DNA from: Massospora cicadina
Taxonomy: Eukaryota > Entomophthoromycota > Entomophthoromycetes > Entomophthorales > Entomophthoraceae
Assembly (NCBI GenBank): GCA_022478985.1
Contig: JAKSZP010002683.1
Location: 124,001 to 188,000, forward strand
Length of the DNA: 64,000 nucleotides
Direction: 5' to 3'
A program made the translations under genes and the position numbers. The notes under the pieces were generated by a model. The model worked only from the letters and a program-made list of their open reading frames with translations, made no database searches and was not told the DNA's origin. Positions 8,307-46,986 of the stretch are shown here, piece by piece (the first letter of the stretch is position 1; every line of letters begins with the position of its first letter).

Positions 8307-9449
8307 TGTTGGGATTTTTGCCCATATTCCCAGCCTTCTAGATTACCTGGTATCTCTAGGGAAAATTCCTAAGACGAAGTGAATTGGAAATTGGTTGGCC
8401 CAAATTATGGAGGAACTACATATGGGGGAATTTGAGATATTCTCCTGGTCATATCCATTGGGGATTGATCTGGATGAATACTTAAGATCTCATCAGGTGG
8501 AGTTGCCAATGAAATAGGGGTATCTGAAAGTGATTAACTATTAGGTGTACCAATTGGGATCGGTCAGGTTTCATCACCAACTGATTGAGAATGAATAGTA
8601 AGTTGTGAGGCGAGTGATGCCACCTGCAACTACCGAATCAATTGGTTGGTGAGTGGCCTGCCATAATGGGTAATAAGTCCCATTACCTAAGAAGGTCGCC
8701 AGCCAATTATGGTTGGTTCGATTGGATTGAGAGGAATCCGTTAGGTACATGTTTTCTAACTCTTTCCAGTTTGAGGTCTTGAGGATGTCCAATGATGGAA
8801 TCCTTGCCAGGATGGGGAAGACCATCACTGTTAAGACGAGAATGGGTGATTTAACAGCAACAGCTGCCATTTCATCTAAGAGGTGTCAACTGAGGGTTAG
8901 ACAGATGAATCCCAACTATATAACTCCCTAGGATTTACTAAAATTAAAAACAGTATTTACAAAAACAGTAAATATAAAAGCATTATCTACAGGAATATTT
9001 TCAATTTGGTGTATAGTTAGACTATCAGCTTCTATTGTGTCATTCTATCTCAAAGATATTATTGCAGAGGGCAATTTTTGGAAGACTCTCAGAGAGAAGA
9101 GTAAAGATTTGAGTGGAGATCTAGAGACAAAGGAACCACAATTAGGAATAGCTGCCAACTGTGTGTTGGGCTGAGAGAGACTGACACTGGGGTATCTTAA
9201 CGAAGATTGGGTGGACAACAATATAGGGAACGAATCCCTATGAGTACAACTTCAAGAGTATTTAATTGGAAATACTGGCAAAGCGTTGGGCCAAATAATA
9301 GTTAAATCTCAACTATGGATGATAGTCTCCATATTATTATTGATTAATATATTCTATACAACGTGACAAAGTGCACAAGGAAATTGAAACTGTGCATAAA
9401 AAGGTTACTGGGTTGATGGCCGGTAATCAATTTAGAGTAAATTTTTACA
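8307..9449 (+). repeat. E2 5' LTR
   Basis: Starts TGTTGGGATTTTTGCCC and ends TTTTTACA. The copy at 16694-17843 aligns along its whole length. A TATATAA at 8917-8923 (17308-17314 in the other copy) is a likely promoter element, about 530 bases before the primer-binding site. The first bases match the E4 LTR in the sense direction (TGTTGGGACATTTGCC), showing the two elements are related. Confidence 0.92.
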
Positions 9450-9452
9450 AGC

Positions 9453-9470
9453 TGGTGCTCACTACAGGGG
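9453..9470 (+). other. E2 primer-binding site
   Basis: TGGTGCTCACTACAGGGG sits three bases after the LTR. Its complement ends in the CCA of a tRNA with acceptor strand ...AGTGAGCA-CCA. The tRNA could not be named. E5 (33488-33505) has the identical 18 bases, and E3, E4, E6 and E7 have variants. Confidence 0.85.
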
Positions 9471-11149: not shown

Positions 11150-11620
11150 CTCCAAGTGTACATATATAGATATATATTTGAATTGAGTGAGGGTGAGGGC
11201 GATTGTCAACAGCGGAGCACCCATCAATATTGTTTCAACCAAGCTGGTAAAGAGGATGAAGATCTCGCTGGACTTAAAGCATAAGAAAGAATATGGAACA
11301 GCTGGGCCAAACATCATTGTTTCCTGTGGAGCGTATAGTGGGCTGCAACTATAATTTGGGTCGTTGGTGGTATCTGCGCCAGCCATAGTTTTGACGAACC
11401 AAATCTATTACATCCTGATCGGAATGGAGTTTCTATGGAAGTATGGAGTTAAATGTATATTTGAGGATAATATGTTGACCATCTTGGGTCAGATGTTACC
11501 ATTGGTATACCAGAAGGATGGTGAAGCACCATTGAATCGGACAAACAACTTCATCAATCTAATATACAATGATGCCATTGTCCATATTCAATACCAATTA
11601 GTTGGTAGGAAGCGACGTTA
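11150..11620 (+). pseudogene. E2 aspartic protease, catalytic Asp lost
   Basis: VRAIVNSGAPINIVSTKL is the retropepsin active-site loop, but the catalytic Asp of D-S/T-G is Asn (AAC, 11208-11210); a G-to-A change from GAC explains it. Downstream SAPAIVLTNQIYYILIGMEFL (given here minus nothing but its last two residues varying) is the flap and second motif, at about 11365-11430, in a frame open to 11621. The same blocks occur in E0 and E6. The lost Asp alone would abolish polyprotein processing. Confidence 0.8.
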
Positions 11621-12159: not shown

Positions 12160-12850
12160 TGAGACCAATATGAAGATTGAAAGCCGCCAAAGCAGTAGCG
12201 GAGGATGAAAATCAGCAAACTAGTGAAGCATGGGATTCTAGTTCTGTCGTCAAGTCCTTGGGCGAGTCTAATTATGAACGTGAAGAAGAAGGATGAATCA
12301 AACTGGGTAGTGATTGACTACCAAAGGCTGAACAAAATTATGAAGAAGGATCTGTATCCCCTACCAAGGATTGATGATGCACTGGATCATTTAGGAGAAT
12401 TGAAGTATTTCTCCGCGATGGATATAATCTTGGGATATTGGAAGATCGACTTGCCAAAGGAAGACCAAGAAATATGCGCGATTATTACCAGCAGGGGCTA
12501 TACCAACTGACAAGGATGCCCTAGGGTCTCCGCAATTGCCTGCAACGTTTCAGAGGGCCATGGATGTGATAATAAGCGACTTGAAGTTGTCATTTGTCCT
12601 GGTATATCTGGACGATATCAACATGTTCAGTAGGACGTTTACTGATTACTTGAACCACTTGGAAGATGTTTTTAATTGACTGTCCATGGCCAACCTGAAG
12701 ATCAAGACAAGGAAGTGACACTTCTTCATGAAAGAGTTGGAATACCTTGGATTTATAATCAACTCAAGTGGATTTCAGCCGCAAACCCAGAAGATAGCAG
12801 CTATAGAGCGTATGGCTGTACCTAAGAGTGTATGAGACATCTAAGTATTT
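12160..12850 (+). pseudogene. E2 reverse transcriptase
   Basis: The open block 12205-12510 covers SSSPWASLIMNVKKKD, VVIDYQRLNKI, DLYPLPRIDDALDHLG and FSAMDIILGYWKIDLP, which are gypsy RT motifs 1-3. After a frameshift near 12510 come the LCN.PATFQRAMD region and YLDDINMFS. Both catalytic Asp codons are intact at 12611-12616. Unlike E4, E5 and E9, where YLDD is YLDN, E2 keeps this site, but the frameshifts make a full enzyme impossible. Confidence 0.88.
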
Positions 12851-12959
12851 TTTGGGATGGTCAGATACTATAGAAGATTTATTCAGGACTTCGCCTGAAT
12901 AGCCAAGCCATTATTCCATTTATTAAAGGGTCCAAAAAAAGGATTTGTATGAAATGAAG

Positions 12960-13440
12960 AGGCCCAGGACTTCTTCGATGAGTTATGCCAGTATTTGATA
13001 AAATCACCGATTCTGAAATATCTAAATTTCAATTGGGAGTATATCATTCAAACTGATGCTTCATTAATGGCGATTGGCGCTTTACTGAGCCAAGTAGGCA
13101 AACTTGAGGATGAAGATCTGGTGGCCTATGTGAGCCAAACATCTCAGCTGCTGAGAGGAACTTCCCTATGACTGAGCGGGAATGCCTTGTGGTCATTTAT
13201 GCATATAAGCAGTTTCAGGTATGTCCACGGAATGCACTTTAAGGTGGTAACAGACAACTCTTTGCTGCGTTGACTGCACAATCTAAGAGAACCGGAAGGA
13301 TGACTGACCTGGTGTCACTTAAGCTTCAGGCTTATGATTATGAGATAGTCCATTGAGCGGGGGCTTCTCACTAGAATGCAAATCGCTTATCGCGATTGCC
13401 AATGGTCCACTTTGTATACCTGCAGGTGGATGAGCTATTC
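12960..13440 (+). pseudogene. E2 RNase H
   Basis: QTDASLMAIGALLSQ carries the first catalytic Asp region of gypsy RNase H. It is followed by a damaged AERNFPMTERECLVV block and by FKVVTDNSLLR, the last conserved Asp. Several stops are explained by single transitions: CGA to TGA in the HRAG motif (VH-stop-AG) and TGG to TGA in the LLRWL motif. Confidence 0.78.
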
Positions 13441-13539: not shown

Positions 13540-14600
13540 TTCTAGACATTAAATGGGAAGCAGCTATTATTCCCAAAACTGTCAGAAAGAGCAGCTATAG
13601 TACAAGCAGCTCACAAGGTTTTTGAGCACGGAGGCCTGAGGAAAACAACTGACCATATTTGCCAGTATTATTACTGGGAATTGATTAACTACAATGTCGC
13701 GGATCATCTGGCTTGTTGCGTGGAGTGCCAGCTGCACAAATCACACAAGAATTCAACTGGATACTGACGGGTCCGCCCTGGATTTGAATGGCACATGGTG
13801 TCCATCAACGTGATGGGACCACTGATGATGAGCATGGGGGGAATCATTTACATCATAGTTGCCATTGACCATCTGACAAGATGGGTCGAGATGAAGGCCC
13901 TAACCAGAGTAGATGCTACCAGTACCATGAGGTTCATCTTGGACCAAGTGGTATACCAGCATGGATGTCCGCAGGTCCTGCTGAGTGACAATGGGATCAG
14001 CTTTAAGTCTCATGTGATCCCAAGGTTAAACAAAATAATGGGGATCCAAGGAGTCATTCAGTACATACCAGCCAGAGACAAACAGACTGGTAGAATGGGT
14101 CAATGGGACGCTGGCCATGACGCTAAGGAAGCTAGTCACAGGGAGAACTTCCACATGGGGAACATACCTGAGTTTGGTGACAATTGCCTACATTAGTCAT
14201 CATATGGCGACGGGAAAGACGCCATTTGAATTATTATATAGAAGAAAGGCCGCGTTGCCGCCAATTTTATATTTGGTGGTGGAACCTACATTGTAGATGA
14301 GTACCAAGCAATACTTGAACCTACTGACGAGTATCCTGATCAATATGAAATCACAAGCATTTGATACTGCCTTGAAGAGAAGGATACAAGCGAAATTGAG
14401 GGATGACAAGAACCAACTGGCAGTAGAAGAATATTAAATAGGGGAAAGAGTCGCCTATTGCAATATGCATGGTTTCAGATGAAGAAACAAATTAGATGCA
14501 TTGTGGTCAGGTCCAATTAAAGTAAACGCCAAGACGGCAACCAATGCTTACTCCATCATGAATCTCTTGGATGGAAGAGATGTAAATCAAGTCCACGCTA
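13540..14600 (+). pseudogene. E2 integrase
   Basis: An HHCC zinc domain is readable: AAHKVFEHGG, about 30 residues, then CCVECQLHK. The core follows in an open block, 13795-14196. The first catalytic Asp is Asn (INVMGP, AAC 13807-13809); the second is intact (LLSDNG). The region of the catalytic Glu is damaged (GRMGQWD where an LVEWVN-like motif is expected). The C-terminal part runs to about 14600 in other frames. With the protease, this is the second catalytic Asp-to-Asn change in E2. Confidence 0.87.
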
Positions 14601-14629
14601 AGTATCTAAAGCGGGTGATCAATGAAAAG

Positions 14630-14860
14630 AATAAAAGAGTTCCCAAAGGACCAATGAACCATTAAGTTAATCATGTCTGGATAATTAGGTCAAGTCTGAA
14701 AAAAGGACCTCTGAACCAATCTAGATGGTTAAGTCCAAAAAAGGACCTTTGAACCATGGAAAACTAGTAGGTTTAAGTACCCATGACCCACTTTGGGGGA
14801 AAAGATGGACTCTTGAACCAAAACAAGGTCAAGTCCCATAGGAAAAAGGAAGAATAAAGA
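14630..14860 (+). repeat. Hairpin-prone tandem repeats at the integrase/antisense-ORF junction
   Basis: Three or four degenerate units of about 40 bases share GGT(T/C)AAGTC, an A-run, GGACCT(C/T)TGAACC. Within a unit GGTTAAGTCC can pair with GGACCTTTGAACC around an A6 loop, with small bulges. E4 has the same repeats in the same place (41600-41880) and a second block at 44560-44880. They sit where the sense pol and the opposite-strand frame converge. Confidence 0.7.
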
Positions 14861-14964
14861 TAAAAAGTTGATAGGAGATATTGAAAAAAATTACAAATGC
14901 ATAGATAAAAAAGCAATTATATTTTTTAATTCAATTTTTATTTTTATTGATTGTCCTCAGTATG

Positions 14965-16115
14965 GGGATGATTCTGCCTATGTCACCTCTTGGGGGAGGG
15001 AGTATGGATTGTGGTAGGAATAAACAGCCCGTCAAAATCATTATGCAATCAGACGCTTGTGAGGGCGAGTCCTACAGGAAGCCATGGTCGTTGAGTGGAT
15101 GCTGAGCCCTGAGAAAAAGCGACTAGGGGAAGGGAAAATTGAGATGTCAGAGGAAAACAATTGCAAAACCCCAGAGCATGGAGGAAAGCAGCAGTATAAT
15201 AATAGGCAAATTGAAGAATAACCCCAAGTAATCCCAATAAGGCACTGGAGCGGAAGATTAGTCCTGAGCGCCTGCCAACAGGCTTCATCAATGACACTGG
15301 ACATGTGGGCCAGCAACAAAGAAGGAATGCTCAACGGGGGTTGCCAAATCATGCCCCCTATCAATGCCATCAGCAGAAGATACCAATGGGAAGCTTAAAG
15401 AAGAGATAGGTGCGCAGATAGCGGATTGCATCCTGCAAGTGGCGACTACAAGCTTTTGGAAGCTAAAGCTGAATGAATGGTGGAACCCAGGCGAGGCTGG
15501 AAGCTGAATGGACCTTTTCGAAGAACTTGGCCAGCAAAGTGAAGAGCATATGCGGCATTATCCCAATCCAGAAGGTTATCAAGATCAGAGGGATTCAGCG
15601 CTAAAGTCAAAGCCTTGGTGATTTGGGTCCAGAGTTCAGCATAGGGGAGCTCAAAGTGAATGCTGTTACCAATTGAGAGCTCGGAGACCAGAACAACAGT
15701 TTATAAAATTGACTGAGTCAGAAGAGGAACTCAGGGAGCAGGTCCAACCCAGCCAGAAACAAACGATCCAGCGCAGCCATCATAATCTCCAGAGCATCTA
15801 CAATGTCGTTTGGATCATCAGCAAAAGGAGCCAAATTCAGGAGGGTTTTGAAGCCCAAATCTGAAATTGACTGCAGAGGAAGAGTCAGCCGAGAGTTGTT
15901 CAAAATGATGGCCTGCTTGGTTTCATAAGGGTTAATTACCATCTCTGGTAATTTGATGGAAGGACTAGACGCTTGTGCCAGAGTAGGCGTAAAGTCCCAG
16001 AAGGACCATAAAAGAGGTTCTGTCGAGCATCCTGACTCATCTGCTGGAAGAGGCGGAGGTCTAGATCAGACAGACTATTGAGGAGCTGCTGGTAGCAAGA
16101 TTTGGAATTTGACAT
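14965..16115 (-). pseudogene. E2 antisense ORF (aORF), about 350-380 codons, unknown product
   Basis: On the strand opposite gag-pol. The ATG at 16115 (MSNSKSCYQQLLNSLSD) has an in-frame TGA 30 bases upstream. One frameshift near 15960 is needed to join the frame holding SDLGFKTLLNLAPFAD (15860-15800) and, in that same frame, QFSLPLVAFSQGSASTQ (near 15130-15080). E4 has the matching protein at 40372-41520. In aligned blocks most base differences are at third codon positions: over 15 codons of the LGFKTLL block I count six third-position and one first-position difference, and over 14 codons of the LPLVAFSQG block all six are third-position. Both copies have TGA after FLF (15718 here). No known domain was recognised. 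It sits in the same place as the antisense ORFs of some plant Tat-type elements. Confidence 0.75.
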
Positions 16116-16144
16116 ATGAGCTGGATGAGAGGGTGGATGTCAGA

Positions 16145-16152
16145 CTTATATA
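16145..16152 (-). promoter_or_regulatory. Possible TATA element for the antisense ORF
   Basis: TATATAAG on the minus strand, about 30 bases upstream of the MSN start. E4 has TATTATAAAA at the matching place (40333-40342, start at 40372). The spacing is short for a TATA box and a start codon, so it may drive a short leader or be chance. Confidence 0.35.
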
Positions 16153-16349
16153 GCAGTTGACATTATGCACTCTATAATCCATTAGGCTCCCATTTTGGGG
16201 AAATTAATCTCAAAATTAATGAGATAAGCTTCCAAGGGAAGATTAGGAATGACTTATGCTAAGAGGTTATGAGTGAAATAACAAGGGCGAATAAGAAGTA
16301 AAGTATTCTTAATTAAGCCACAAAACAAACATTAGTGGCAAGAGTCTCC

Positions 16350-16685
16350 TGTCTAGGACGAGAAGAAAATCAGGAAATCAAAGACTCCAGACCAAGAATC
16401 CTGAATATGACAGCAGGTCATATACCCTGATGGGGGGAAAACTAAATCTGGGACTAATATCATCATGAGTAAATCGATCAGCCTGGCATTACAGAAGGTT
16501 GTGGGGACCGCGCTCTGAGAAGGCGGTAGCAAGAAGGAAGAGGAAGAACGCCATATGCCAAAGGTCATCCTGAGCAGCATTGAGTATTGACGAGTGTACT
16601 CCACTTGAATCAATGAAGTATTTGACCAGGTGTCTGAAGCAGTGTTCTCATGTTCCAGTCCTTTTCTTTCTGAAAATCTAGGCAA
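16350..16685 (-). pseudogene. E2 conserved antisense segment upstream of the aORF
   Basis: A 110-codon minus-strand frame (16685-16353) starts beside the polypurine tract. E4 39860-40240 and E3 26940-27400 contain homologous sequence in the same relation to their 3' LTRs; PTTFC.ARL, LLM.IL and the nucleotide run TATGACC.(G/T)CTGTCATATTCAGGATTC are shared by E2 and E4. Which frame was coding is unclear, since similarity switches frame. It could be an upstream exon, a separate small ORF or an antisense leader. Confidence 0.45.
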
Positions 16686-16693
16686 GAGGGGGA
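16681..16693 (+). other. E2 polypurine tract
   Basis: GGCAAGAGGGGGA lies directly before the 3' LTR (TGTTTTG), where plus-strand DNA synthesis would be primed. E3 has CAAGAGGGGGGATA in the same place. Confidence 0.85.
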
Positions 16694-17843
16694 TGTTTTG
16701 TAATTTTTGCCCATATTCCCAGCCTGCTAGATTACCTGGTATCTCTAGGGAAAATTCCCTAAGGTGAAGTGAATTGGAAATCAGTTGGCCCTAGTTTCAG
16801 AGGAACTATGTTTGGGGGATTTTGAGATATTCGCCTGGTTGTATCCATCGGGGATCAATCCAGATGAATACACAAGATCTCATTGGGTGGAGTTGCCAAC
16901 AAAATAGGGGCATCTGATAGTGATTTAATACCAGGTGTACCAATTGGGATTGGTCAGGTTTTATCACCAACTGATTGGGAATGAATAGTAAGTTGTGAGG
17001 CGAGTGATGCCACCTGCAACTAGCGAATCAATTGGTTGGTGAGTGGCCTGCCATAATGGGTAATAAGTCTCGTTACCTAAGCAGGTCGCTAGCCAATTAT
17101 GGTTGGTTCGCTTGGATCAAGAGGTTAACATTAGGGACACATTTTCTGACTCTTTCCAGTTTGAGGTCTCGAGGATGTCCGATGACAGAATCCTAGCCAG
17201 TATGGGGAAGACCATCGTTGATGAGATGAGAATGGGTGATTCAATGGCAATGGCCGCTGTTTTATTGAAGAGGTGTTAACTGAGGGTTAGACAGCTGAAT
17301 CCCCCACTATATAATTCCCTAGGATTTACTATAATTAAAAACAGTATTTACAAAAACAGTAATTAGAAAAGCATTATCTACAGGAATATTTTCAATTTGG
17401 TGTATAGTTAGACTATCAGCTTCTATTGTGTCATTCTATCTCAAAGATATTATTGCAGAGGGCAATAATTGGAAGACTCTCAGAGAGAAGAGTAAAAGAT
17501 TTGAGCGGGGATCTAGAGACAAATGAACCACAATCAGGAATAGCTGCCAACTGTGTGTTGGGCTGAGAGAGACTATCACTGGGGTATCTTAACGAAGATT
17601 AGGTGGACAAGAATATAGGGAACAAATCCCTACAAGTATGACTTCAAGAGTATTAAATTGGAAATACTGGCCAAAGCGTTGGGCCAAATAATAGTTCAAT
17701 CTCAATGAAGGATAATAGTCTCCATACTATTATCCATTAATACATTCTATACAATGCGATGAAGTGCACGAGGAAATTGAACTTGTGCAGTAAAAAGGTT
17801 ACTGGGTTGATGGCCAATAATCAACCTAGAATAAATTCTTACA
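16694..17843 (+). repeat. E2 3' LTR
   Basis: Copy of 8307-9449, from TGTTTTGTAATTTTTGCCC to TTCTTACA, followed at once by the right-hand ACCTC duplication. The two LTRs differ at scattered positions, many of them transitions, so the insertion is old. Confidence 0.92.
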
Positions 17844-18560
17844 ACCTCCTTAACTCAACGCTTATAACTTCGGTCCATGGTATGGCTATGACCTTTGTAT
17901 TAGGAGCATATGGGGATGTTTTTGTCCTTTGCTTCAATAAGGTCTATAAAAGGCTGACTGAGGGCTTAGAAAGATAATAATATATTCAATGTAGCAGCAG
18001 AAGATCTTTTTTTGCCTCCTTGATTTCTTGGATAATACTGAAAGTCCATTTGAGCTTAATCATATGTAATTGGACATCAGGACAGGACTTTAGGTAAGAG
18101 ATAACTTTGGCAATGGCTTGATCTAGAGAAATGTGATTAATAACACCGATGGGCGAGTGCTTTCATAGACTCGCTTAAAGAAGTTGGTGGGACTTTACCT
18201 CTTATTTGGGTGGATTGAAATACAGGGTTCCTTTTAGTTTGAGAGAATTGATCACTTAACAACTCCTAAACTAAAGCGGTCTTGACTTGCGCCTAGGTCT
18301 AAAATTCACGCTGCTTTTTGTTCATGATTTCTTTAGCCTCTCCACAAAGACAGGAATGGTGTGTGTCACTTTCTACCTGTTGTTAGCCTCCTCTATAGCA
18401 CTTTAATAATCATTTAAAACGACGCAATACTCTCCTGTCCTATTTGAACATCTCCTTGTAGTTGGGGTTAAGTCTAGAGCAAGAAGCGAGACATAAAGTT
18501 TTTAGGCTGGGCTCAGAACTACAACTCAACTCAGAGAAAAACTCTCCACATACTCGCAGA
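17844..18560 (-). pseudogene. E1b gag-like remnant beyond the E2 insertion
   Basis: If E2 is removed, this joins the minus-strand E1b sequence ending at 8306. The minus strand at about 18480-18250 reads in pieces such as VLNDY, SAIEEANNR, IPVFVERLKKS and SVNFRPRRKSRPL, with stops between. Length and position fit a decayed gag capsid; no zinc knuckle was seen. Assigned mostly from context. Confidence 0.4.
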
Positions 18561-21978: not shown

Positions 21979-22882
21979 TGTCAGAATTGCAGATGACCAC
22001 ATAATCCAACCTTTTAACTGATTAATAGATTTGATGATTAACTTATAGTCATATACAATTGGCAACAGCGGCCAAAGGATGAAATTACTATCAGGCATCA
22101 TCCCTGATGATATTTGAGGCCGCTGACAAATGAGAATTTTGTCGAGCATCATCCCCAATAAAATTAAACAATAATTTGATATAGAATAACACCCAATAGT
22201 CAAATTGTAGGGAATTGTTGAGAGTGGAAATGATTGGAGTTGTCAATGAAACTACCAAAACGTTTGAACGCCGGAGGAAGAGTAGAATTGTCTTTGGATG
22301 AAACAATTGGTTTTGAGTCCCTAAATCCAATTGTTTGGTCCACCAAACACCCAAGGATTACACTGCCTAAGAAACTCAAGGCAACGGTACCCAAAGAGAT
22401 TTGGTGCCTAACACTGAGGGCAAATTAGATTAGTAGCACAAAATAATTCCCAGCGGACAGCTGAGAAGTTGTGTGCTGATTATAACTATAAAACCCCAAA
22501 TTATTCCCTAATATAAGCAGATTCAAACTTGATATTAACTAAGTTTTTTAACATTAGTTTTTTAAGATTACTCTTAAGAGAAGAGTGCAAGGATCAGATA
22601 TTCTTAAGTTGTTACTATCAAGTCTCCACTTGGCTCAGCGTGAAGAGAATAGGGAAAGTGTTCCCTACCAGTACTAGAATATTTTCAAGACGAAGAAGCA
22701 CCAGTTTAGCATTATATTTCATTTAACGTGGCTTTGAGGATTCAACCCTAATAATAGTCTTCATACTAACATTGCCCCAATTACTCAATTTCAATCAAGT
22801 AATTAATGCAAGGATCCACAAATCTGTGCAGTTGAAATCTAGGGCCAGAAGCGAACAACTAACCAAGCCCAAGATGTTAACA
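21979..22882 (+). repeat. E3 5' LTR
   Basis: From TGTCAGAATTGCAGATGACC to GATGTTAACA. Aligns with 27413-28373; the 3' copy has extra internal sequence, including repeated TCATCCCCAATGAT units near 27530-27600. TATAAAA at 22487-22493 (27971-27977 in the other copy) is a probable TATA box. Confidence 0.9.
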
Positions 22883-24935: not shown

Positions 24936-26935
24936 CACTTTCAAGCAATTTTATCAAGAAAAACCAAAAAGTAAGTAATACAATTAGCGATCAAATGCCA
25001 ACCACAGCTGATCTATCTTCAATGACATTGGATTTGCCACCGGCACTCCAGTGTGGGGCAGAGGAGAAACCCTGCCTAGCATTTTCCATCCAGCAGGAAA
25101 ACGTGCTCAGACTGGATCATCCAGTCCCAACAAGTCCTTGGGTCGGTTTAGTCCACCCAAGGATCTTGCCATCCACCTGGCATGAACCCAGGTGGTACCT
25201 CGCAGCCCACTCATTCTCCCTTGCTCCCAGCTCCATTTTGGCCTTTGGGTTGAGTACAAAATATTGTTCCCATATGAGGAACAAGCAATTATTGACCTGG
25301 CCCAGGTGGTGATGCAGCCAGCCAGCTTCATTGACTTCTGCCCCTTTAAGGGGTATTTTGACCTCGGCTTCACCTGTGAAGCTGACGCCGCCAATGCAGC
25401 TTATGTGCCCCTGGTTTTCAAGGGCACACCCATTCCCACCACATGCACCCAGCTCCCCACCAACACAACATTGGTAGTCCAATTCGTGGGGCTGCCCACT
25501 CACCTCCCCCCGCAGTACTACATAGGGAGTTGCTGGAAGGATTGGCCGCTTATGGCTCCAACCTCATCCTTCAGTTTGTGGTCCCCAATGGGGCCACCTG
25601 CCTAGCCGGGCCTCAGGCATTTGCCACAATCAGCCCAAAAATTTGAAATTTTCTTTGTCACTTCCACCCCATGCCATCGTACCCTCTGCCCCCAATCACC
25701 CATTCTGGGCCCATGTAGAGGGCGGGAGGACAATCTGTCCTTCCTGCTTTGAGTTATATCACTCAAAGTGCAAATGCCCATCCCTTGCAGCTTCCTCTGA
25801 CCCAGCGCGGTCATTGCAAGGCCCACACTTTGCCTTAAGCCCCACCACTTTTCTGACATGGGGTACAATACTACCCCCTCCCACAAAGCCTGCTGCCGCC
25901 TTGGGGCCTGCTGCAGCCAATCAGCCCCTTCCTCAGGCCAGTGCCACCTGCGCCTCACCCAGTGCCACTTGCACCTCATCCAATCAGGAATCATATTGGA
26001 CTAATGTGGATTCCCACATTATTCTACAATCACCAGTCACACCACTTCAATTTGTGGACCCCAATTTTGAGTTTGACTTGAACCCATGGTCCTCATTGGC
26101 TGAAACAGATGAGATGGGTAATTTTATTGAGGCCTTGCAGCCCGCATACAACGAATTTATCCAGAGTCAGAATCCCAAACTGGTCATTCAATGATTTTAT
26201 GCCCCCCAACCAAACGCCGTGGAGTTCCACTTGGACCACCAGCTTGCTATTGCAGCAGCCACCCACCCTGAGGTAACCACTATCTGTGAACTGGCCGAGT
26301 TGGCAGTAGCAGCACTAGCCACAGAAAATTTCGCCCCCATCCTCAAGACATCCACACCTGTTAACCACAAAGTCGCCATTGAGATTGCACACAGGTGCAC
26401 TGAGGATGCCATCCAGCAAGTGGTTTCCGCCTTGCAGGCCAACTTTTGAGTTACCTGAGCCTCCATGGCTTCACTGTCCCATCTCCCTGCCCTCCGCATT
26501 AAGGCGGAGGCCACCATATCCAAATACATCAGCGACTTGCTGTTGTACAATCAATTCCCCAGGCAGCCACTTGTTACCAACCTCGCTCCCCATGTCGCTG
26601 ATCACCTCACCCCTTTGCTCTCCTCCATGGCCATGCTCTCGCTGATGATGAGCATGATTCTGAGAATGAGCCACCTGATCCCCCTCCCCTTCCGCCATGG
26701 TAGGATGAGCGCCTCGGTGCTGTCCCTCCTGGTAGGTTGGTGTTATAATCGTTATGTTTCACTTTTCTTTGATCAGTTGTTTTAATTGGTCTGAGAATTT
26801 AGTTAGTATAATTTTTGTCACTTTCTGCACTTTGGTAATGTCCATCTCCTGGTTGGTGTGCCTTGTAATAAATTTAAAAAGAAAAAAAGATGAATAAAAA
26901 TATAAAAAGTAAAAAATATTAAAAACAATTTTAAA
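24936..26935 (+). mobile_element. LINE ORF1 segment with A-rich tail, inside E3
   Basis: Pro- and Ala-rich, more GC-rich than its surroundings, and read in successive plus-strand frames: 24996-25312 (MPTTADLSSMTLDLPPALQC), 25192-25605, 25643-26194, 26219-26449 and 26465-26785. CPSCFELYHSKCKCP near 25740 is a C-x2-C-x4-H-x3-C zinc motif of the kind found in LINE ORF1 proteins. The segment ends in an A-rich stretch (26868-26935) whose ATGAATAAAAATAT resembles the tail of the split LINE at 29403. A-rich DNA also precedes it (24840-24925). ORF2 is absent. Host or other LINE origin is inferred. Confidence 0.6.
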
Positions 26936-33659: not shown

Positions 33660-34730
33660 TCAATTTTTAAAGGACATTTGTTACAAACTCAAGGCATTTT
33701 TAACCCATCTGCTAAAGAACTCTTGCCTTGCCCTGGAGTATTGGATTATTCTTATTCAGGATCTTTATCTGTCTTACTGACAAACCTTACCAAAGAGCCA
33801 AAACTGGTAGATTGAGAGTATCCAATTGCTCATGTCAAGTTACTGCCCTTATCTCAGGTTTATGATGTTGAACCCTTTGGAAGTTTACAAGATTTTGGGT
33901 TGGAAAGTGATCAGGAAATCCTTACTGTGTGTCCTGCTATCAGGAAACACCTCTCTAAGGAACAGGAGAAACAAGTGCTTCAATTTTTAAATGAATATTC
34001 TGACATTTTCACTAAGCATACTTGCAATTTTGGGAAGATGAAAGGAGTAATGCACTCTGTTGAGACTGGTGATCACCTTATTATTCGTGCAAAGCCTTAT
34101 CATAAGTCTAAAGTAGAAGAAGCCCCGGTTACTAAGGAGCTGCAACAATTGTTGGAGGCTATATTTTTTCCTCCAATAGTCATTGGGAATCTCCGTTTTT
34201 ATTGGTTAATATTAAAGACATTTCTCACTGAGTGTTATGGATATCACAGACTGAATACTATTACTCGACAAGGTTTCCCCTTACCTTGGATCAATGATTC
34301 CCTTAGGTTGTTGGCCGGATCCACCTATTTTTTGGCCATGGACTTAGCCAGTGGCTACTGGTAAATCGAGTTATCACCAGATGATGGTGCCAAGTGTGCC
34401 CTGATATCAAGTGAAGGGTTGTTTGAACCAACTTGAATGCCTCAAGGACTAAGCAATGACCCAGCAACTTTCTAAAGGGCTATGGACAGTATGTTACAAA
34501 ATCTAAAACTTACTTGTGTTCTGGTATATCTTGATAATATTACCAAGTTTTCCAAAACTTTTACCGAGCATTTGGACCATATATAAGAAGTTTTCAAACA
34601 AATTCGGAGCTCCTCCTTAAAACTCAAACCCTCCAAATGTTAATTTTTTGAAAACGAAATGGACTTTTTAGGACCTCAGGTCTCAGCTAAAGGGATTTGA
34701 CACCTCTTAGATAAAATTTAAGCCATACAA
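33660..34730 (+). pseudogene. E5 pre-RT linker and reverse transcriptase
   Basis: The open block 33900-34364 runs from a linker (HLSKEQEKQVLQFLNEYSD) through AKPYHKSKVEEAPVTKELQQ to FLAMDLASGYW, RT motif 3. A CAA-to-TAA change then makes a stop (W-stop-IELSP). Beyond it come MPQGLSNDPATF and YLDNITKFS, where the second catalytic Asp is Asn (AAT, 34536-34538). The SPVLLVKKKDG block is altered to VIGNLRFYWL. Confidence 0.88.
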
Positions 34731-35330
34731 AGAATGTATCCTCCAACTTCTCTGCGGTATATTCAGGTCTTTCTCGGCATGGTTGGGTATTACCAGCAAT
34801 TTAAACCCAACTTTGCTGGTATGACTGAGCCTTTATTCCACCTATTGCAAAAAGGAGTGCCCTTTGTTTGGGGATCAGCTCAAGAACAGTCATTCAATTC
34901 TTTATGTACTGCTTTAACCAAGGCTCCTGTTCTAATTCATCCCCAGTTTGACAAGCCTTTCTTTTTACATACTGATGCCAGCAGTGTCACTATTGGGGCT
35001 ATCTTATCCCAGTGTGATGAAGAGAAGAATGATCATCCCATTGCTTTCTATAGCAAAACTTTGTCAAAGGCTGAACGGAATTACAGTGTCACTGAGCGGG
35101 AGTGTTTGGCTGTAATATTAGCAATCAAGCACTTCCGTCCCTTCTTATATGGTAACCATTTCACTGTGATTACCGACCATTCATCCTTAAGATGGTTGCA
35201 GAACATGAAGGATCCTGATGGGAGATTGACTATTGGGCTTTAAGGTTGCAAAATTATGATTTTCTCATTTGTTCTTCGTTCAGGTGCTCAACATCAAAAT
35301 GCTGATGGGCTATCCCAATTGCTGTTCTGA
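34731..35330 (+). pseudogene. E5 RNase H
   Basis: Open from 34734 to 35243. FLGMVGYYQQFKPNFA and PLFHLLQKGVPFVWG are the connection region after RT. FLHTDASSVTIGAILSQ, ERNYSVTERECLAVILAIK and FTVITDHSSLRWLQN carry the Asp, Glu and Asp expected of gypsy RNase H. Nearly intact over 169 codons. Confidence 0.9.
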
Positions 35331-35399
35331 TTTTGGAACTAGATAGGGAAGAACGCTCATATAAACTTATTGGATGACCTGAGTTGTGGGATTAAGAAA

Positions 35400-36540
35400 C
35401 AGAAGAGGATCAAGCCTTTCTAAAATCAATTACTAAAGATACTATGATTTGGGATATAGCTTTGTATAAGAAAGTCAGATCCAAGTGGTTGCCCTTTCTG
35501 CATCCCAACTCTAGATTTCACGCTGTAATGGAAGGTCATGAACAAGTTGATCATAGTGGCCTAAAGAAGAATCAAGAATGGTTAAAGACTTAATACTATT
35601 GGAATAATATGGTTGAGTTCATCCAAGAAATCCTTGCCTCATATCTTATTTGTAAATGCCATGGAGCGACTAACCCTACTCTTCAACATCGAGTTATACC
35701 ACCAACTAAGGCATTTGAGATAGTTAGAATTGACGTTGTAGGTCCTTTTCCTCAAGGATTGCATGGACATCAGTATATCATTATGGCTGTCAACCATTTA
35801 ACTAAAATGGGTTGAGGCCATTTCCATTGCTACCCCCTCAGATAAAACTACAGAACAATTCCTATACCAACATATCATTTCTCAACATGGGTGTCCCAAG
35901 GTCCTTATGTCTGATAATGGAACTAACTTCACCTTGCAACTTATACAGGAGTTATCCAAATTATTTAACACTGCTCAGCGATTTGTTGTCCCCTATAATC
36001 CATCTACAAATGAGGCCATTGAACGAGTTAATGGAACCCTAGTCTCAATTCTAAGGAAGATGGCCTCCAATGACCCAACTCGGTGGAATTTTTATTTGCC
36101 TAGTGCCTTGTTTGCTTATCAGATAAGCTATCATCGCATTATCAAGATGTCCCCTTTTAAATGTATATATGGGTGGGATCCTTCAGTTCCTTCTAGTGTT
36201 CAGACAATCCTTGAGGAAAACTTTCCAGAGAATTCTGATTTGATTATGAGGAATTTGGCTGATGAGATTATCTGTCTTCAAGATCAAGCAATGAAATCAA
36301 TTAAAACAACCACTTGAAGAGAGACTCAAAGGTGTAATCAACACAAACCTGCCTTATGTGAATACCAGATTGAGGATTATGTTATGTACTAACATTATTG
36401 GCCTCGTGGACGAACTGAAAAGTTAGGAACTAATTGGTCTGGTCCCTATCAAGTTATTTTTGAAAAGGACTAGAGTACTTGATTGTCATGTTGATATTGG
36501 TATAGTGGTAAATTATATTCATCCTAGGTTTTTAAGAAGT
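35400..36540 (+). pseudogene. E5 integrase
   Basis: A partial zinc domain (GHEQVDHSGLKK; CKCHGAT, where C-x2-C is now C-x-C) is followed by the core: IDVVGPFPQGL (first Asp), a frameshift near 35815, MSDNGTNFT (second Asp) and NEAIERVNGTLVSILRK (Glu). The 136-codon block 35907-36317 covers the latter half. All three D,D-35-E residues survive, but in two frames. Confidence 0.9.
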
Positions 36541-38660: not shown

Positions 38661-38670
38661 TCATGGCAGT

Positions 38671-39792
38671 TGTTAAAATTTAGGGGCTTCTCTGCTTGTT
38701 AAAAAGTATTAACCCCTAATTGATAACTGCACAGGTTCGATGTGTGCACCCTTTGCATTGTCTTATGATATATGATATATGATTGATAATAGTATGAAGA
38801 CTTTTATCCATAGTTGAATAGATTACTAGTGTTTGTCCAACGCTTGACCAGTATTTCTCCTTGAGTTATTCTAGATTTCATTAATAGGGATTAATACCCC
38901 TTATCCACCTAACTTGATCTATGCTCAGATCCCTAGTTTATGGCCTTTCTTCTGGTGACACAAAGTCGGCAGCAATTCCCATCTCAGCTTAGCTTCTCTT
39001 CTAAGGATCCTTGATTCTTACTCTTTATCCTTTTGAAGAGTTCCAAATTAAAGCACACAACAATAATTACCTGAAGATATATGGAACTAAAACCAATAAT
39101 GAATTCTTCTACTCAGGTTTTTTCATGTATCTGAGGTTTTTCATGTTTTCTATGTGAATTTACAGGGGAATTTATAGAGGGAATTCAGCGCCCAATCCTC
39201 AGTTGGCTCCTCAGACTTGAAACGGCAGCCATTGCTGTTTAAATTACCCTTCATCATCTCATCAGCGAGGGTCTTCCCCATCCTGGTAGGATTCCTTCAT
39301 TAGTCATCCTTGAGACCTAAAACGGAAAGAGTCAAAAAACGTGTTTCTAACATATTCCACTTGATCATACCAAATCAACCATATTTGGAAAGCGACCTGC
39401 TTAGGTAATGGGACTTGTTAACCAATATAACAGGTCACAAACCAACTGATCAATTTCTAGTTGCAGATGGCATCACTCACCTTGCAACTTGCTCCTTAAA
39501 TTCCCAGTCGTTTGGTGATAAAACCTGACCTATCCCAATCAGTACACCAGATAGTTAACCATCACAACTATCAGATGCCCCCATTTTGTTGATAACTCTG
39601 CCTTATGAGATCTTAAGCATCCATCCAGATTGATCCCGAGTAGATCTAAAACAGGAAAATTACCTAAAATCTTCCGAACATTATTAACCCAAAATTGGGG
39701 TCAGCTAATATTTAATTCACTCGCTATCAGGTATTATCCCCTAGTGATCCATGGTAATCTAGACTGCTGGAAAGATGGAAAAAATCCCAACA
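38671..39792 (-). repeat. E4 3' LTR
   Basis: Plus strand TGTTAAAATTT...AATCCCAACA; sense ends TGTTGGGATT and AAATTTTAACA. Shares with the other copy a TGATATATGATATATGATTGAT block (38766-38790 here) and a six-way match to the E2 LTR start. Confidence 0.88.
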
Positions 39793-40371: not shown

Positions 40372-41520
40372 ATGTCGAATTTGAGTTCTCAGTATCAACA
40401 ACTGCTTGACAGCATGTCTGATAAAGATGTTTGGCTCTTCCAACTGATGAGTCAATCTACGTGATGGAGCCTCTTCTATGGTCCTCCCAGGACTCATACT
40501 CCCAGTCAAGTGCCCATGACCAGTCCTTCCATGGAATTACTGGAAACAGTATCTGTCCCTGACAAAACCAGGTTAGCAATCATTTCAAATGACTTGCAAC
40601 CAATCCTTCCTCTATCTTTAATTCCTGAGTTAGGTTTCAAAACTCTCCTGGATTTGGCTCCATTTGCAGATACTCCTAAAATCATCATTAAATCTCCTGA
40701 AGCAATGCCCTCCACTTTTGATTGATCATTTCTCACTGGATCAGACTTGCCTCTAAAGTTTCTTTTCTGATTCAGCCAGTTTTATAAATTAGCTGTTATG
40801 TCAACTGAATTAGCCATCAGAAACTGTGAACATTTTGTTGCCTCTACACAGAATTGAAGACCTGAGTAACTGAGTCTCTATTCATAGCTCTGAACCCCTC
40901 TAATCTCAAAAGATCCTAGATTGAGACGTTATGGCCTATGCTCTTCGCTTTGCCATCCAAGTTCTTTGAAGTTGGGCCATGAAGCTTCCAGCCTCTCCCA
41001 GCTTCCATCGCTCATTCTGCTTTTGCTTCCAAGAATCACATAACTATCATATTCAGTATGCCATTCAATCCCTGCATAATTATATCGTTTCTGGCATGTC
41101 CCATTGGTACCTTCCCCTGAAGGCTTTGATCAGGGGATGATTTGGCAACCCCCACCTAGTACCCTTGTTCAATGCTGGCCCATATATCCAATGTTCTTGA
41201 CATAGCTTGTTAGCAAGTGCTCAAGACCAATCTTCCAGTTCCCATGCCATATTGGCATTACTCAGGATTATTTGCTGACTGACTCTTCTTGTTCTGTTGC
41301 TCCCCCCAATCCGGGGTATTGTGTTTGGCAAGTACCAACATTTTCATCTCTCTTCCCCTAGTTGCGTTCTCACAGGGTTCAGCCTCCACTCAACATAATT
41401 GCCTTCAAGTAAGTCTAGCACTTGCTAGCGTCCAATCTCACATAGATTTCAACGGTTTGTTCACTTCTACGGCAACACATCATCCCTCCCCAAGAGGTGA
41501 CATAGGCATAATCAAGTTGA
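40372..41520 (+). pseudogene. E4 antisense ORF (aORF), homologue of E2 14965-16115
   Basis: MSNLSSQYQQLLDSMSDKD begins at 40372. The frame runs to 40725 with a single internal stop; that TGA lies opposite CGA (Arg) of E2, a C-to-T change. It includes PELGFKTLLDLAPFAD. A frame change then leads to SLPLVAFSQGSASTQ (in the open block 41289-41573) and LALASV..H.DF.GLF. Codon-by-codon comparison with E2 shows mostly third-position differences (for YQQLL: TAC/TAT, CAG/CAA, CAG/CAA, CTC/CTG, CTC/CTT). Product unknown; no signal peptide or membrane segment stands out in the first 120 residues. Confidence 0.75.
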
Positions 41521-45845: not shown

Positions 45846-45863
45846 CCTCTTTAGTGAGCACCA
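45846..45863 (-). other. E4 primer-binding site
   Basis: The minus strand reads TGGTGCTCACTAAAGAGG, two bases inside the 5' LTR; it differs from E2 at two positions. Confidence 0.82.
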
Positions 45864-45865
45864 AT

Positions 45866-46986
45866 TGTTGAAATTTATGGGCATCACTGCTCGTTCATAA
45901 ATATCAACCTTAAATTGATAATTCGCACTTGTCAGTTTGTGCACCCTTTGCAATGTCTGATGATATATGATATATGATTGATAATAGTATGAAGACTATT
46001 TTCCATAGTTGAATAGATAACCAGCGTTGGTCCAACGCTTGACTAGTTTTCCTCCTCAAAATACTCTAAATGTTTTCAATAGGTGTTTATATCCTTATCC
46101 ACCTAACTCGATCCTAGCTCAGATCCCTAGTTTACAGCATTTTCTCTTGTGACGCGAAGTCAGCAGCAATTCCCATCTCAGCTCAGCTTCTCTTCTAAGG
46201 ATCCTCGATCCTTACTCTTTATCCTTCTAAAGAGTCCTCAATTAAAGCACACAGCAATAATTTCTGAAGATGAATAGAACTAAAACAATAATAAATTCTG
46301 CTACTTGGGTTTTTCATGTATCTGAGTTTTTTGTGTTTTTATTAAGTGAATTATCAGGGGAATTTATATAGGGAATTTGGCGCCCAACCCTTGGTTGGTG
46401 CCTCAGCCTTGAAATGGCAGCTATTGCCATTAAATATCCCTTTGTAGTCACATCAGTGAGGGTCTTCCACATCCTGATTAGGATTCCTTCATAATACATC
46501 CTCAAGACCTAAAACAAAATAGTCAGAAAACGTTTCCCTAACGTTTTTCACTCAATCCCAGCAAATTAACCATATTTTGTAAATGACCTGCTTAGGTAAT
46601 GGGACTTGTTACCCATTATGGCAAGTTGCAAACCAAAGATCAATTTTCTAAATTCAGGCAGCATCACTCATATCACAACCTGCTCCTTAAATTCCTAATT
46701 GGTCAGTGATGAAACCTGACTGATCCTAATTGGTACACCTGATTGTTAATCACCAATCAACTATTAGATGCTCCATTTCGTTGGTAACTCTGCCTTATGA
46801 GATTTTTAAGCATTCACCCATAATGATCTTCAACAGATCTGAATCAGGCGAAATACTTAAAATCCTTCAAACATTATTAACCCAAAATCGTGGTCAACTG
46901 ATATCTAATTCACTAGCTATAGGGAGTTATCACCTAATGATCCATGGTTATCTAGACGGCTAGAAAGGTGGGCAAATGTCCCAACA
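45866..46986 (-). repeat. E4 5' LTR
   Basis: Sense TGTTGGGACATTTGCC to AAATTTCAACA. TATATAA on the minus strand at 46370-46364 is a likely promoter element. Partner of 38671-39792. Confidence 0.88.

What the first reader, a model, noticed from the sequence alone, without database searches (positions are those of the whole stretch)
14965..16115. Antisense ORF in a Ty3/gypsy element, conserved with E4 and showing third-position substitution bias
E2 (minus strand, 16115-14965) and E4 (plus strand, 40372-41520) each carry a homologous frame opposite to gag-pol, between integrase and the 3' LTR. Both start MSN and share YQQLL, LGFKTLL.LAPFAD and LPLVAFSQGSASTQ. In the LGFKTLL block I count six third-position against one first-position difference; in the LPLVAFSQG block all six are third-position; YQQLL differs at five codons, all synonymous. 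That pattern needs selection on the antisense protein. No domain was recognised. Plant Grande and Tat/Ogre-type elements have antisense ORFs in this place; a fungal-type counterpart would be new to me.
Basis: partly seen in the sequence, partly recalled or inferred. Interest (0 to 1): 0.88.

Follow-up and report, generated by a model that had tools for sequence, protein, structure and literature searches.

The report
Antisense gene in fungal retrotransposon
A very abundant family of jumping genes in a giant, probably fungal, genome carries a real extra protein gene written backwards behind its usual genes; such backward genes were known from plant elements and one other fungal element, but this protein resembles nothing in the databases searched.

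Summary
E2 and E4 share a homologous frame opposite to gag-pol, between integrase and the 3' LTR; both copies are broken. Copies fetched from the host genome (1.47 Gb) show that it was a gene. Of 68 fetched E2-type copies, one is open for 331 codons from the ATG. Stops are 1.1% of codons in this frame against 4.0-6.4% in the other five. Variants private to one copy (decay after insertion) have N/S 3.12; variants shared by five or more have 0.62 (Fisher p 4e-19). A repeat gave 3.08 and 0.52, and integrase, as positive control, 5.11 and 0.52. Between E2 and E4 groups dN/dS is 0.21. The gene runs tail to tail with pol, with a TATA-like box before its ATG, AATAAA at its stop and a basic C-terminal tail. 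No relative was found. Best reading: an accessory gene with its own antisense transcript, perhaps a nuclear regulator; transcript and function untested. A new member of a known kind.

The parts
8307..9449 (+). E2 5' LTR (about 1.14 kb; 0.896 identical to the 3' LTR over aligned bases)
   Evidence: local alignment 8314-9453; TGT...ACA edges by eye
11187..11351 (+). E2 protease piece
   Evidence: Pfam gag-asp_proteas E 0.0025, below curated cut-off
12199..12676 (+). E2 reverse transcriptase pieces (two frames)
   Evidence: RVT_1 E 1e-6, just below cut-off
12953..13168 (+). E2 RNase H piece
   Evidence: RT_RNaseH_2 E 5.5e-15
13546..14193 (+). E2 integrase zinc-binding and core pieces
   Evidence: Integrase_H2C2 E 1.5e-11; rve E 1.3e-7 (just below cut-off)
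14483..14662 (+). E2 last open piece of the pol side (integrase tail); end of pol at about 14662
   Evidence: open frame; no Pfam match; in copy L002 it follows integrase pieces in one frame
14944..16115 (-). E2 antisense gene (broken): ATG at 16115-16113, stop TAA at 14946-14944
16145..16152 (-). TATA-like box 37 bases before the antisense ATG
   Evidence: TATAWA within 70 bases upstream in 56 of 68 copies; exact 8-mer in 77% of 66, rank 77 of 560 leader 8-mers
14943..14948 (-). AATAAA overlapping the antisense stop (poly-A-signal-like)
   Evidence: 61 of 66 copies
16116..16693 (-). leader between the antisense ATG and the 3' LTR
16694..17843 (+). E2 3' LTR
   Evidence: local alignment 16703-17847; edges by eye
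40372..41520 (+). E4 antisense gene (broken copy of the second subfamily; E4 itself lies on the minus strand)
38667..39792 (-). E4 3' LTR (0.824 identical to its partner)
45862..46986 (-). E4 5' LTR

Best explanation
The frame is an accessory protein gene of a very abundant Ty3/gypsy LTR retrotransposon family, coded on the strand opposite to gag-pol and tail to tail with pol. Shown: it is homologous and collinear in two subfamilies; it was open and under purifying selection at the protein level while the elements were spreading; the copies have since decayed, largely neutrally. Inferred: it is read from its own short antisense transcript, starting at a TATA-like box just before the ATG or in the leader/3' LTR and ending at the AATAAA at its stop. 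Inferred, weaker (about 0.4): the product, about 390 residues, predicted helical, with a basic C-terminal tail, enters the nucleus and regulates the element's own cycle (transcription, RNA export, copy number or escape from silencing), as has been proposed for the antisense protein of maize Grande.
For: Strand asymmetry: 27 open frames of 150 aa or more overlap the region in 70 loci, 27 of 27 on the antisense strand (26 distinct, since L040/L045 are one place). Stops: 248 of 23466 codons in the antisense frame against 949-1490 of about 23400 in each other frame, 68 copies; E4 group (11 copies with E4) 83 of 3550 against 158-209 of about 3545. Selection: private against shared variants N/S 3.12 and 0.62; 3.08 and 0.52 with another copy as coordinates; integrase control 5.11 and 0.52 (frame checked against integrase pieces). 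Fixed differences between the groups by codon position 23 of 239, 20 of 263, 67 of 209; dN/dS 0.21 over 150 sampled pairs. Start codon ATG in 61 of 68 copies. TATAWA in 56 of 68 copies, AATAAA in 61 of 66. Basic tail: of 40 copies in which the tail motif was located, 23 read on through it and 15 of these carry KRRHR. Both AlphaFold models are all-helical.
Against: No RNA data were available. The shared TATA and AATAAA motifs could be kept by common descent alone; the TATA 8-mer is only 77th of 560 leader 8-mers by conservation. The models have mean pLDDT 49 and 51 and pTM 0.28 and 0.30, so they say nothing firm about fold. Calling the basic tail a nuclear signal is recall, not a test. In 28 of 68 copies the tail motif was not found. 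The C-terminal part taken alone has few shared variants (7 synonymous, 9 not), so selection there is not established. Within the E4 group alone dN/dS does not single out the antisense frame (0.50, against 0.50 and 0.54 in two sense frames), and in 2 of its 10 fetched loci the longest open frame is on the sense strand. The copies are not independent: they share ancestry, so p-values are indicative.
Confidence: 0.8

Rival explanations
1. The frame is a by-product: the selection acts on a sense-strand protein whose third codon positions coincide with those of the antisense frame.
For: The mirror sense frame shows a weaker drop (N/S 3.56 to 1.40; 3.58 to 1.40) and dN/dS 0.30 between groups. The integrase control shows that neither phase nor a drop in N/S alone can tell the strands apart: there the mirror frame drops from 3.50 to 0.79 and even has fewer stops (2.6% against 3.2%).
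Against: Here the mirror sense frame has 1490 stops in 23403 codons, at least 17 in every copy, and 209 in 3545 in the E4 group, against 1.1% and 2.3% in the antisense frame. No sense open frame of 150 aa or more overlaps the region in 70 loci. N/S and dN/dS are lower in the antisense frame.
Confidence: 0.02
2. The antisense RNA, not a protein, is the working product (double-stranded RNA or antisense control of the element); the open frame is incidental.
For: Antisense noncoding transcripts of retrotransposons, and silencing by double-stranded RNA as a possible role, are discussed in PMC7264820 (passages).
Against: RNA function does not predict third-position excess, low N/S and lack of stops in one frame. 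It may act in addition to the protein.
Confidence: 0.06
3. It is an envelope-like gene or another structural particle protein rather than a regulator.
For: The position between pol and 3' LTR is that of env; the models are all-helical, which Gag-type proteins are too (recalled).
Against: Orientation is antisense. The best 19-residue hydropathy mean among five open stretches is 1.61 (L002), no convincing membrane segment. No convincing Pfam or PDB relative.
Confidence: 0.15
4. A host gene fragment captured recently by some copies.
For: Gene capture by transposable elements is known (PMC7264820, passages).
Against: The frame is present in two subfamilies that differ at about 30-33% of its sites and fixed differences between them show selection. 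No database protein resembles it. Host genes were not searched apart from repeats, and an ancient capture is not excluded.
Confidence: 0.1

Closest known systems
brtn of the fungal LTR element Boty (Botrytis cinerea, Sclerotinia sclerotiorum; Zhao et al. 2011, seen only as a citation and in review passages)
   Same: Fungal LTR retrotransposon; one extra antisense gene between pol and the 3' LTR (PMC7264820 passages; PMC8365987 passages, which place brtn in BcGypsy1).
   Different: Different host; I did not have the brtn sequence, so relatedness is untested. The passages seen mention no selection test for brtn.
GENE23 of maize Grande
   Same: Antisense, between pol and 3' LTR. Reported to have its own promoter and a nuclear product (PMC7264820 passages), as inferred here.
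   Different: Plant element; here own promoter and nuclear site are not tested, and the sequences were not compared.
Retand-type plant Gypsy elements with TRP28-domain antisense ORFs
   Same: Antisense ORF between pol and 3' LTR conserved in the lineage (PMC11963269 passages).
   Different: No TRP28 domain found here. The pol-to-3' LTR region of E2 is about 2.0 kb, against 2.9-6.6 kb in Retand, and has no tandem array.
HTLV-1 HBZ (antisense retroviral gene)
   Same: Antisense gene of an LTR element (PMC11963269 passages; antisense promoter in the 3' LTR, PMC7264820 passages).
   Different: HBZ is a bZIP protein (recalled); no Pfam bZIP match here. The TATA-like box lies outside the LTR, near the ATG.

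Membership tests
Antisense additional ORF between pol and 3' LTR (aORF-3R) | Frame on the strand opposite to gag-pol | tested here: met
Antisense additional ORF between pol and 3' LTR (aORF-3R) | Lies between pol and 3' LTR | tested here: met
   pol side ends about 14662, antisense gene 14944-16115, LTR from about 16694
Antisense additional ORF between pol and 3' LTR (aORF-3R) | Present in most copies of the family | tested here: inconclusive
   150 scored protein matches and 40 scored DNA matches for each of two subfamilies, but the copies were found with the frame itself, so copies without it would be missed
Antisense additional ORF between pol and 3' LTR (aORF-3R) | Antisense transcript | not testable with these tools
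   no RNA data; TATA-like box and AATAAA only
Retand lineage | Antisense TRP28 (PF04195) domain | tested here: not met
   no Pfam match with E up to 1 in the first query; among 18 members of A2, two chance-level hits, both to other families
Retand lineage | pol-to-3' LTR region of 2.9-6.6 kb | tested here: not met
   about 2.0 kb in E2
Boty / brtn | Homology to the brtn protein | not tested
   brtn sequence not held; whether the protein database searched contains brtn is unknown
Ty3/gypsy LTR retrotransposon | Order protease, RT, RNase H, integrase between LTRs | tested here: met
   protease, RT and integrase-core pieces score below curated cut-offs in this decayed copy, RNase H and integrase zinc pieces above
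Envelope-like gene | Sense orientation and membrane segments | tested here: not met
   antisense; no convincing membrane segment in five open stretches

The most novel reading that the evidence does not exclude
Antisense accessory genes arose independently in plant and fungal gypsy elements, including an early-diverging fungal lineage, because the antisense position lets an element make a regulator whose dose follows the number of integrated copies rather than genomic RNA. Here such a regulator (anti-silencing or copy-number control) helped one family grow to very high copy number in a genome of 1.47 Gb.
Probability: 0.2. Interest if true: 0.75.

Novelty: new member of a known kind. Interest (0 to 1): 0.5.

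Why it matters
In the papers I saw, antisense genes of LTR elements are described mainly as conserved open frames of unknown role. Here the abundance of dead copies gives a built-in neutral yardstick, and the protein proves to have been held by selection of roughly the same order as integrase. If, as seems likely but is not proven, the host is an entomophthoralean fungus, a group whose giant genomes are rich in Ty3 elements (PMC11105155 passages; PMC9584336, part read), the gene belongs to one of the families behind that growth and becomes a concrete candidate for what let it spread.

Tried and rejected
Protein relatives: none with E up to 10 among 6589 candidates and 7647 candidates. Pfam: 0 for the first query; for A2, 2 chance-level hits in 18 members (E 0.028 and 0.24). 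NCBIfam: 0 for 3 proteins. PDB sequences: 0 and one chance hit at E 0.23. Viral contigs and genome contigs: no relative confirmed (the tool says that records near the window's own genome may be left out). Rfam: 0 in the window at the gathering threshold. Structure: two models, all-helical but of low confidence. Fold searches did not complete and would have meant little. A 149-row alignment to deepen the model misaligned its fragments and was dropped; a 38-row one was used instead. Other LTR elements of the window: a search with the L002 protein found only E2 and E4 (next-best places E 1.7 and worse). Frame lengths alone settle nothing there, since E4's own longest antisense frame is only 86 aa. 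A plant host was considered; the plant-marker control (PF00504) did not complete, so only the chitin synthase result speaks to it.

Full report
What is there. The window lies in a genome of 1,469,884,898 bases in 16,968 contigs. E2 is an LTR element on the plus strand with LTRs at about 8307-9449 and 16694-17843 (0.896 identical); E4 is its relative on the minus strand, with LTRs at about 38667-39792 and 45862-46986 (0.824 identical). E2 carries protease, reverse transcriptase, RNase H and integrase pieces in the Ty3/gypsy order; protease, RT and integrase-core pieces score below the curated cut-offs in this decayed copy. The last open piece of the pol side ends at 14662. The antisense frame begins with an ATG at 16115 and, in copies that keep the end, runs to the stop that lies at 14946-14944 in E2. 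The two genes therefore point tail to tail, with about 280 bases between them, and about 580 bases lie between the antisense ATG and the 3' LTR.

The observation. E2 and E4 are collinear here. Tracked along the frame of a real open copy (331 codons), they differ at 92, 76 and 157 sites of codon positions 1, 2 and 3 (326, 321 and 326 sites; p 4e-8). Neither copy is open: 2 stops in E2 and 8 in E4 in the projected frame, plus frameshifts.

Copies. The first look of the genome search gave 8511 loose candidates for the E2 stretch by DNA (40 scored, 40 matching), 17,201 by protein (150 scored, 150 matching) and 7837 for E4 (40 scored, 40 matching); true copy number was not measured. I fetched 80 loci: 70 from the E2-type searches and 10 for the E4 group. 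L001/L041 and L040/L045 are the same places, so most counts use 68 copies. One of these, L002, is open for 349 codons, 331 of them from the ATG; 27 open frames of 150 aa or more overlap the region and 27 of 27 are antisense (26 distinct). One search lists other long open frames (up to 331 aa) at places that I could not fetch. In the E4 group (10 fetched loci) the longest antisense frames are 66-131 aa and the longest sense frames 63-103 aa; in 2 of 10 the sense one is longer, so this group is more decayed.

Stops. Over 68 copies the antisense frame has 248 stops in 23466 codons; the other five frames have 949-1490 in about 23400 each. No other frame has fewer than 9 stops in any copy. In the E4 group (11 copies with E4) it is 83 of 3550 against 158-209 of about 3545. 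Of the 248 stops, 94 lie at three columns where other copies show CpG-type alternatives; CpG observed/expected in the window is 0.31. CpG decay after insertion thus accounts for a large part of the breakage.

Selection. After insertion a copy decays freely, so a variant found in one copy only is a neutral yardstick, while a variant shared by many copies mostly arose in the spreading lineages. Outside CpG contexts, private variants in the antisense frame are 146 synonymous and 456 not (N/S 3.12; 201, 208, 193 by codon position). Variants shared by at least five copies are 104 synonymous and 64 not (N/S 0.62; 45, 25, 98 by position); Fisher p 4e-19 (the stretch begins 54 bases before the ATG; variants found in 2-4 copies and CpG-context transitions were left out). 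With another copy as coordinates, starting at the ATG, the values are 3.08 and 0.52. The integrase tail in its sense frame, as positive control, gives 5.11 and 0.52; one search confirms that this frame reads integrase pieces. In that control the mirror antisense frame also drops (3.50 to 0.79) and has slightly fewer stops (2.6% against 3.2%), so the drop alone does not name the strand; stops do so for the antisense gene. In four of the other five frames over the antisense gene shared N/S is 3.2-8.3. The exception is the sense frame whose third positions coincide with the antisense ones (1.40); it has at least 17 stops in every copy. A second integrase stretch had few shared variants (11 synonymous, 8 not, in the lowest sense frame; 35 copies) and breaks across frames in the coordinate copy, and the C-terminal part of the antisense frame also had few (7 and 9; 65 copies).

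Between subfamilies, 23 of 239, 20 of 263 and 67 of 209 sites at codon positions 1, 2, 3 are fixed differences. Mean dN is 0.254 and dS 1.295 over 150 sampled pairs (median ratio 0.21); the mirror sense frame has 0.30 and the other four 0.66-1.14. Within groups the ratio is higher (0.39 and 0.50), as expected when neutral decay dominates; within the E4 group the antisense frame does not stand out (0.50 and 0.54 in two sense frames). Against L002, 68 sequences differ at 0.109, 0.112 and 0.160 of sites by codon position (transversions 0.024, 0.023, 0.046), while the upstream flank shows no third-phase excess (0.108, 0.117, 0.100). The flank is no faster than codon positions 1 and 2, so it is not a clean neutral reference; the private variants are.

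Signals. The ATG is kept in 61 of 68 copies. A TATAWA motif lies within 70 bases upstream in 56 of 68 copies (about 6 expected by shuffling), mostly at -37/-36, and AATAAA lies near the stop in 61 of 66 copies (about 12 expected). Common descent alone could keep both; the TATA 8-mer ranks only 77th of 560 leader 8-mers. The C-terminal tail is basic: of 40 copies where the tail motif was located (28 of 68 not located), 23 read on through it and 15 of these have KRRHR; in L022, L033 and L052 the tail is in one open frame with the preceding part. That this could be a nuclear signal is recall and inference.

What the protein is. No relative was found in a database of about 5.8 billion proteins, Pfam, NCBIfam or PDB sequences. 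Two AlphaFold models are all-helical but weak (mean pLDDT 49.1 and 51.3); the first 30 residues of the second are its best part (block means 71-80).

Host. Chitin synthase (PF03142) gives 36 matches, best 934 bits, which points to a fungus; that family also rings in 4 of 14 control genomes, all four bacteria. Size and contig number resemble the 1.488 Gb, 19,694-scaffold assembly of Massospora cicadina (PMC9584336, part 1 of 3 of the text read), whose relatives have giant genomes rich in Ty3 elements (PMC11105155, passages). This identification is a guess; no call proves it.

Known kind. [quoted passage not shown] PMC11963269 passages; PMC8365987 passages). The Zhao et al. 2011 paper itself was not read. 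For Grande the review reports transcription from a promoter upstream of gene23 and a nuclear product, which is the closest working model for the present gene. I saw no report of this family in the listings; several listings were cut (20 of 171 papers, 15 of 18, 12 of 23, 10 of 19, 10 of 235), and the library holds open-licence papers only, so this is no proof that it is unpublished.

Verdict. A real antisense accessory gene held by selection: confidence about 0.95 for coding and selection, about 0.6 for its own antisense transcript, about 0.4 for a nuclear regulatory role. It is a new member of a known kind, with unusually firm evidence of selection.

Noticed in passing
E2 about 16685-16695 and 16128-16138 (minus strand reading): A polypurine-tract-like stretch next to the 3' LTR recurs just before the antisense ATG; the two 8-mers are identical in 91% of 64 and 88% of 67 copies, among the best-kept of the leader; E2 itself has one extra base in the second. 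It could be a second plus-strand primer site.
   Followed up: partly
window 1-64000: CpG observed/expected is 0.31 with TpG raised to 1.17: strong CpG decay, suggesting DNA methylation in this genome.
   Followed up: no
G000, contigs listed: More than ten dispersed matches, most with stops, cover the same part (about positions 180-340) of the chitin synthase profile; this looks like a gene fragment carried around by a repeat.
   Followed up: no
window 25526-26194: A 222-aa open frame inside an element with repeats at 22249/27733, with other open frames of 132-148 aa opposite it or nearby; no convincing Pfam match for the 222-aa frame.
   Followed up: no
window 33816-36317: A different, better preserved Ty3/gypsy pol (RNase H E 5e-41) lies before E4; the antisense protein has no match behind it.
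   Followed up: partly
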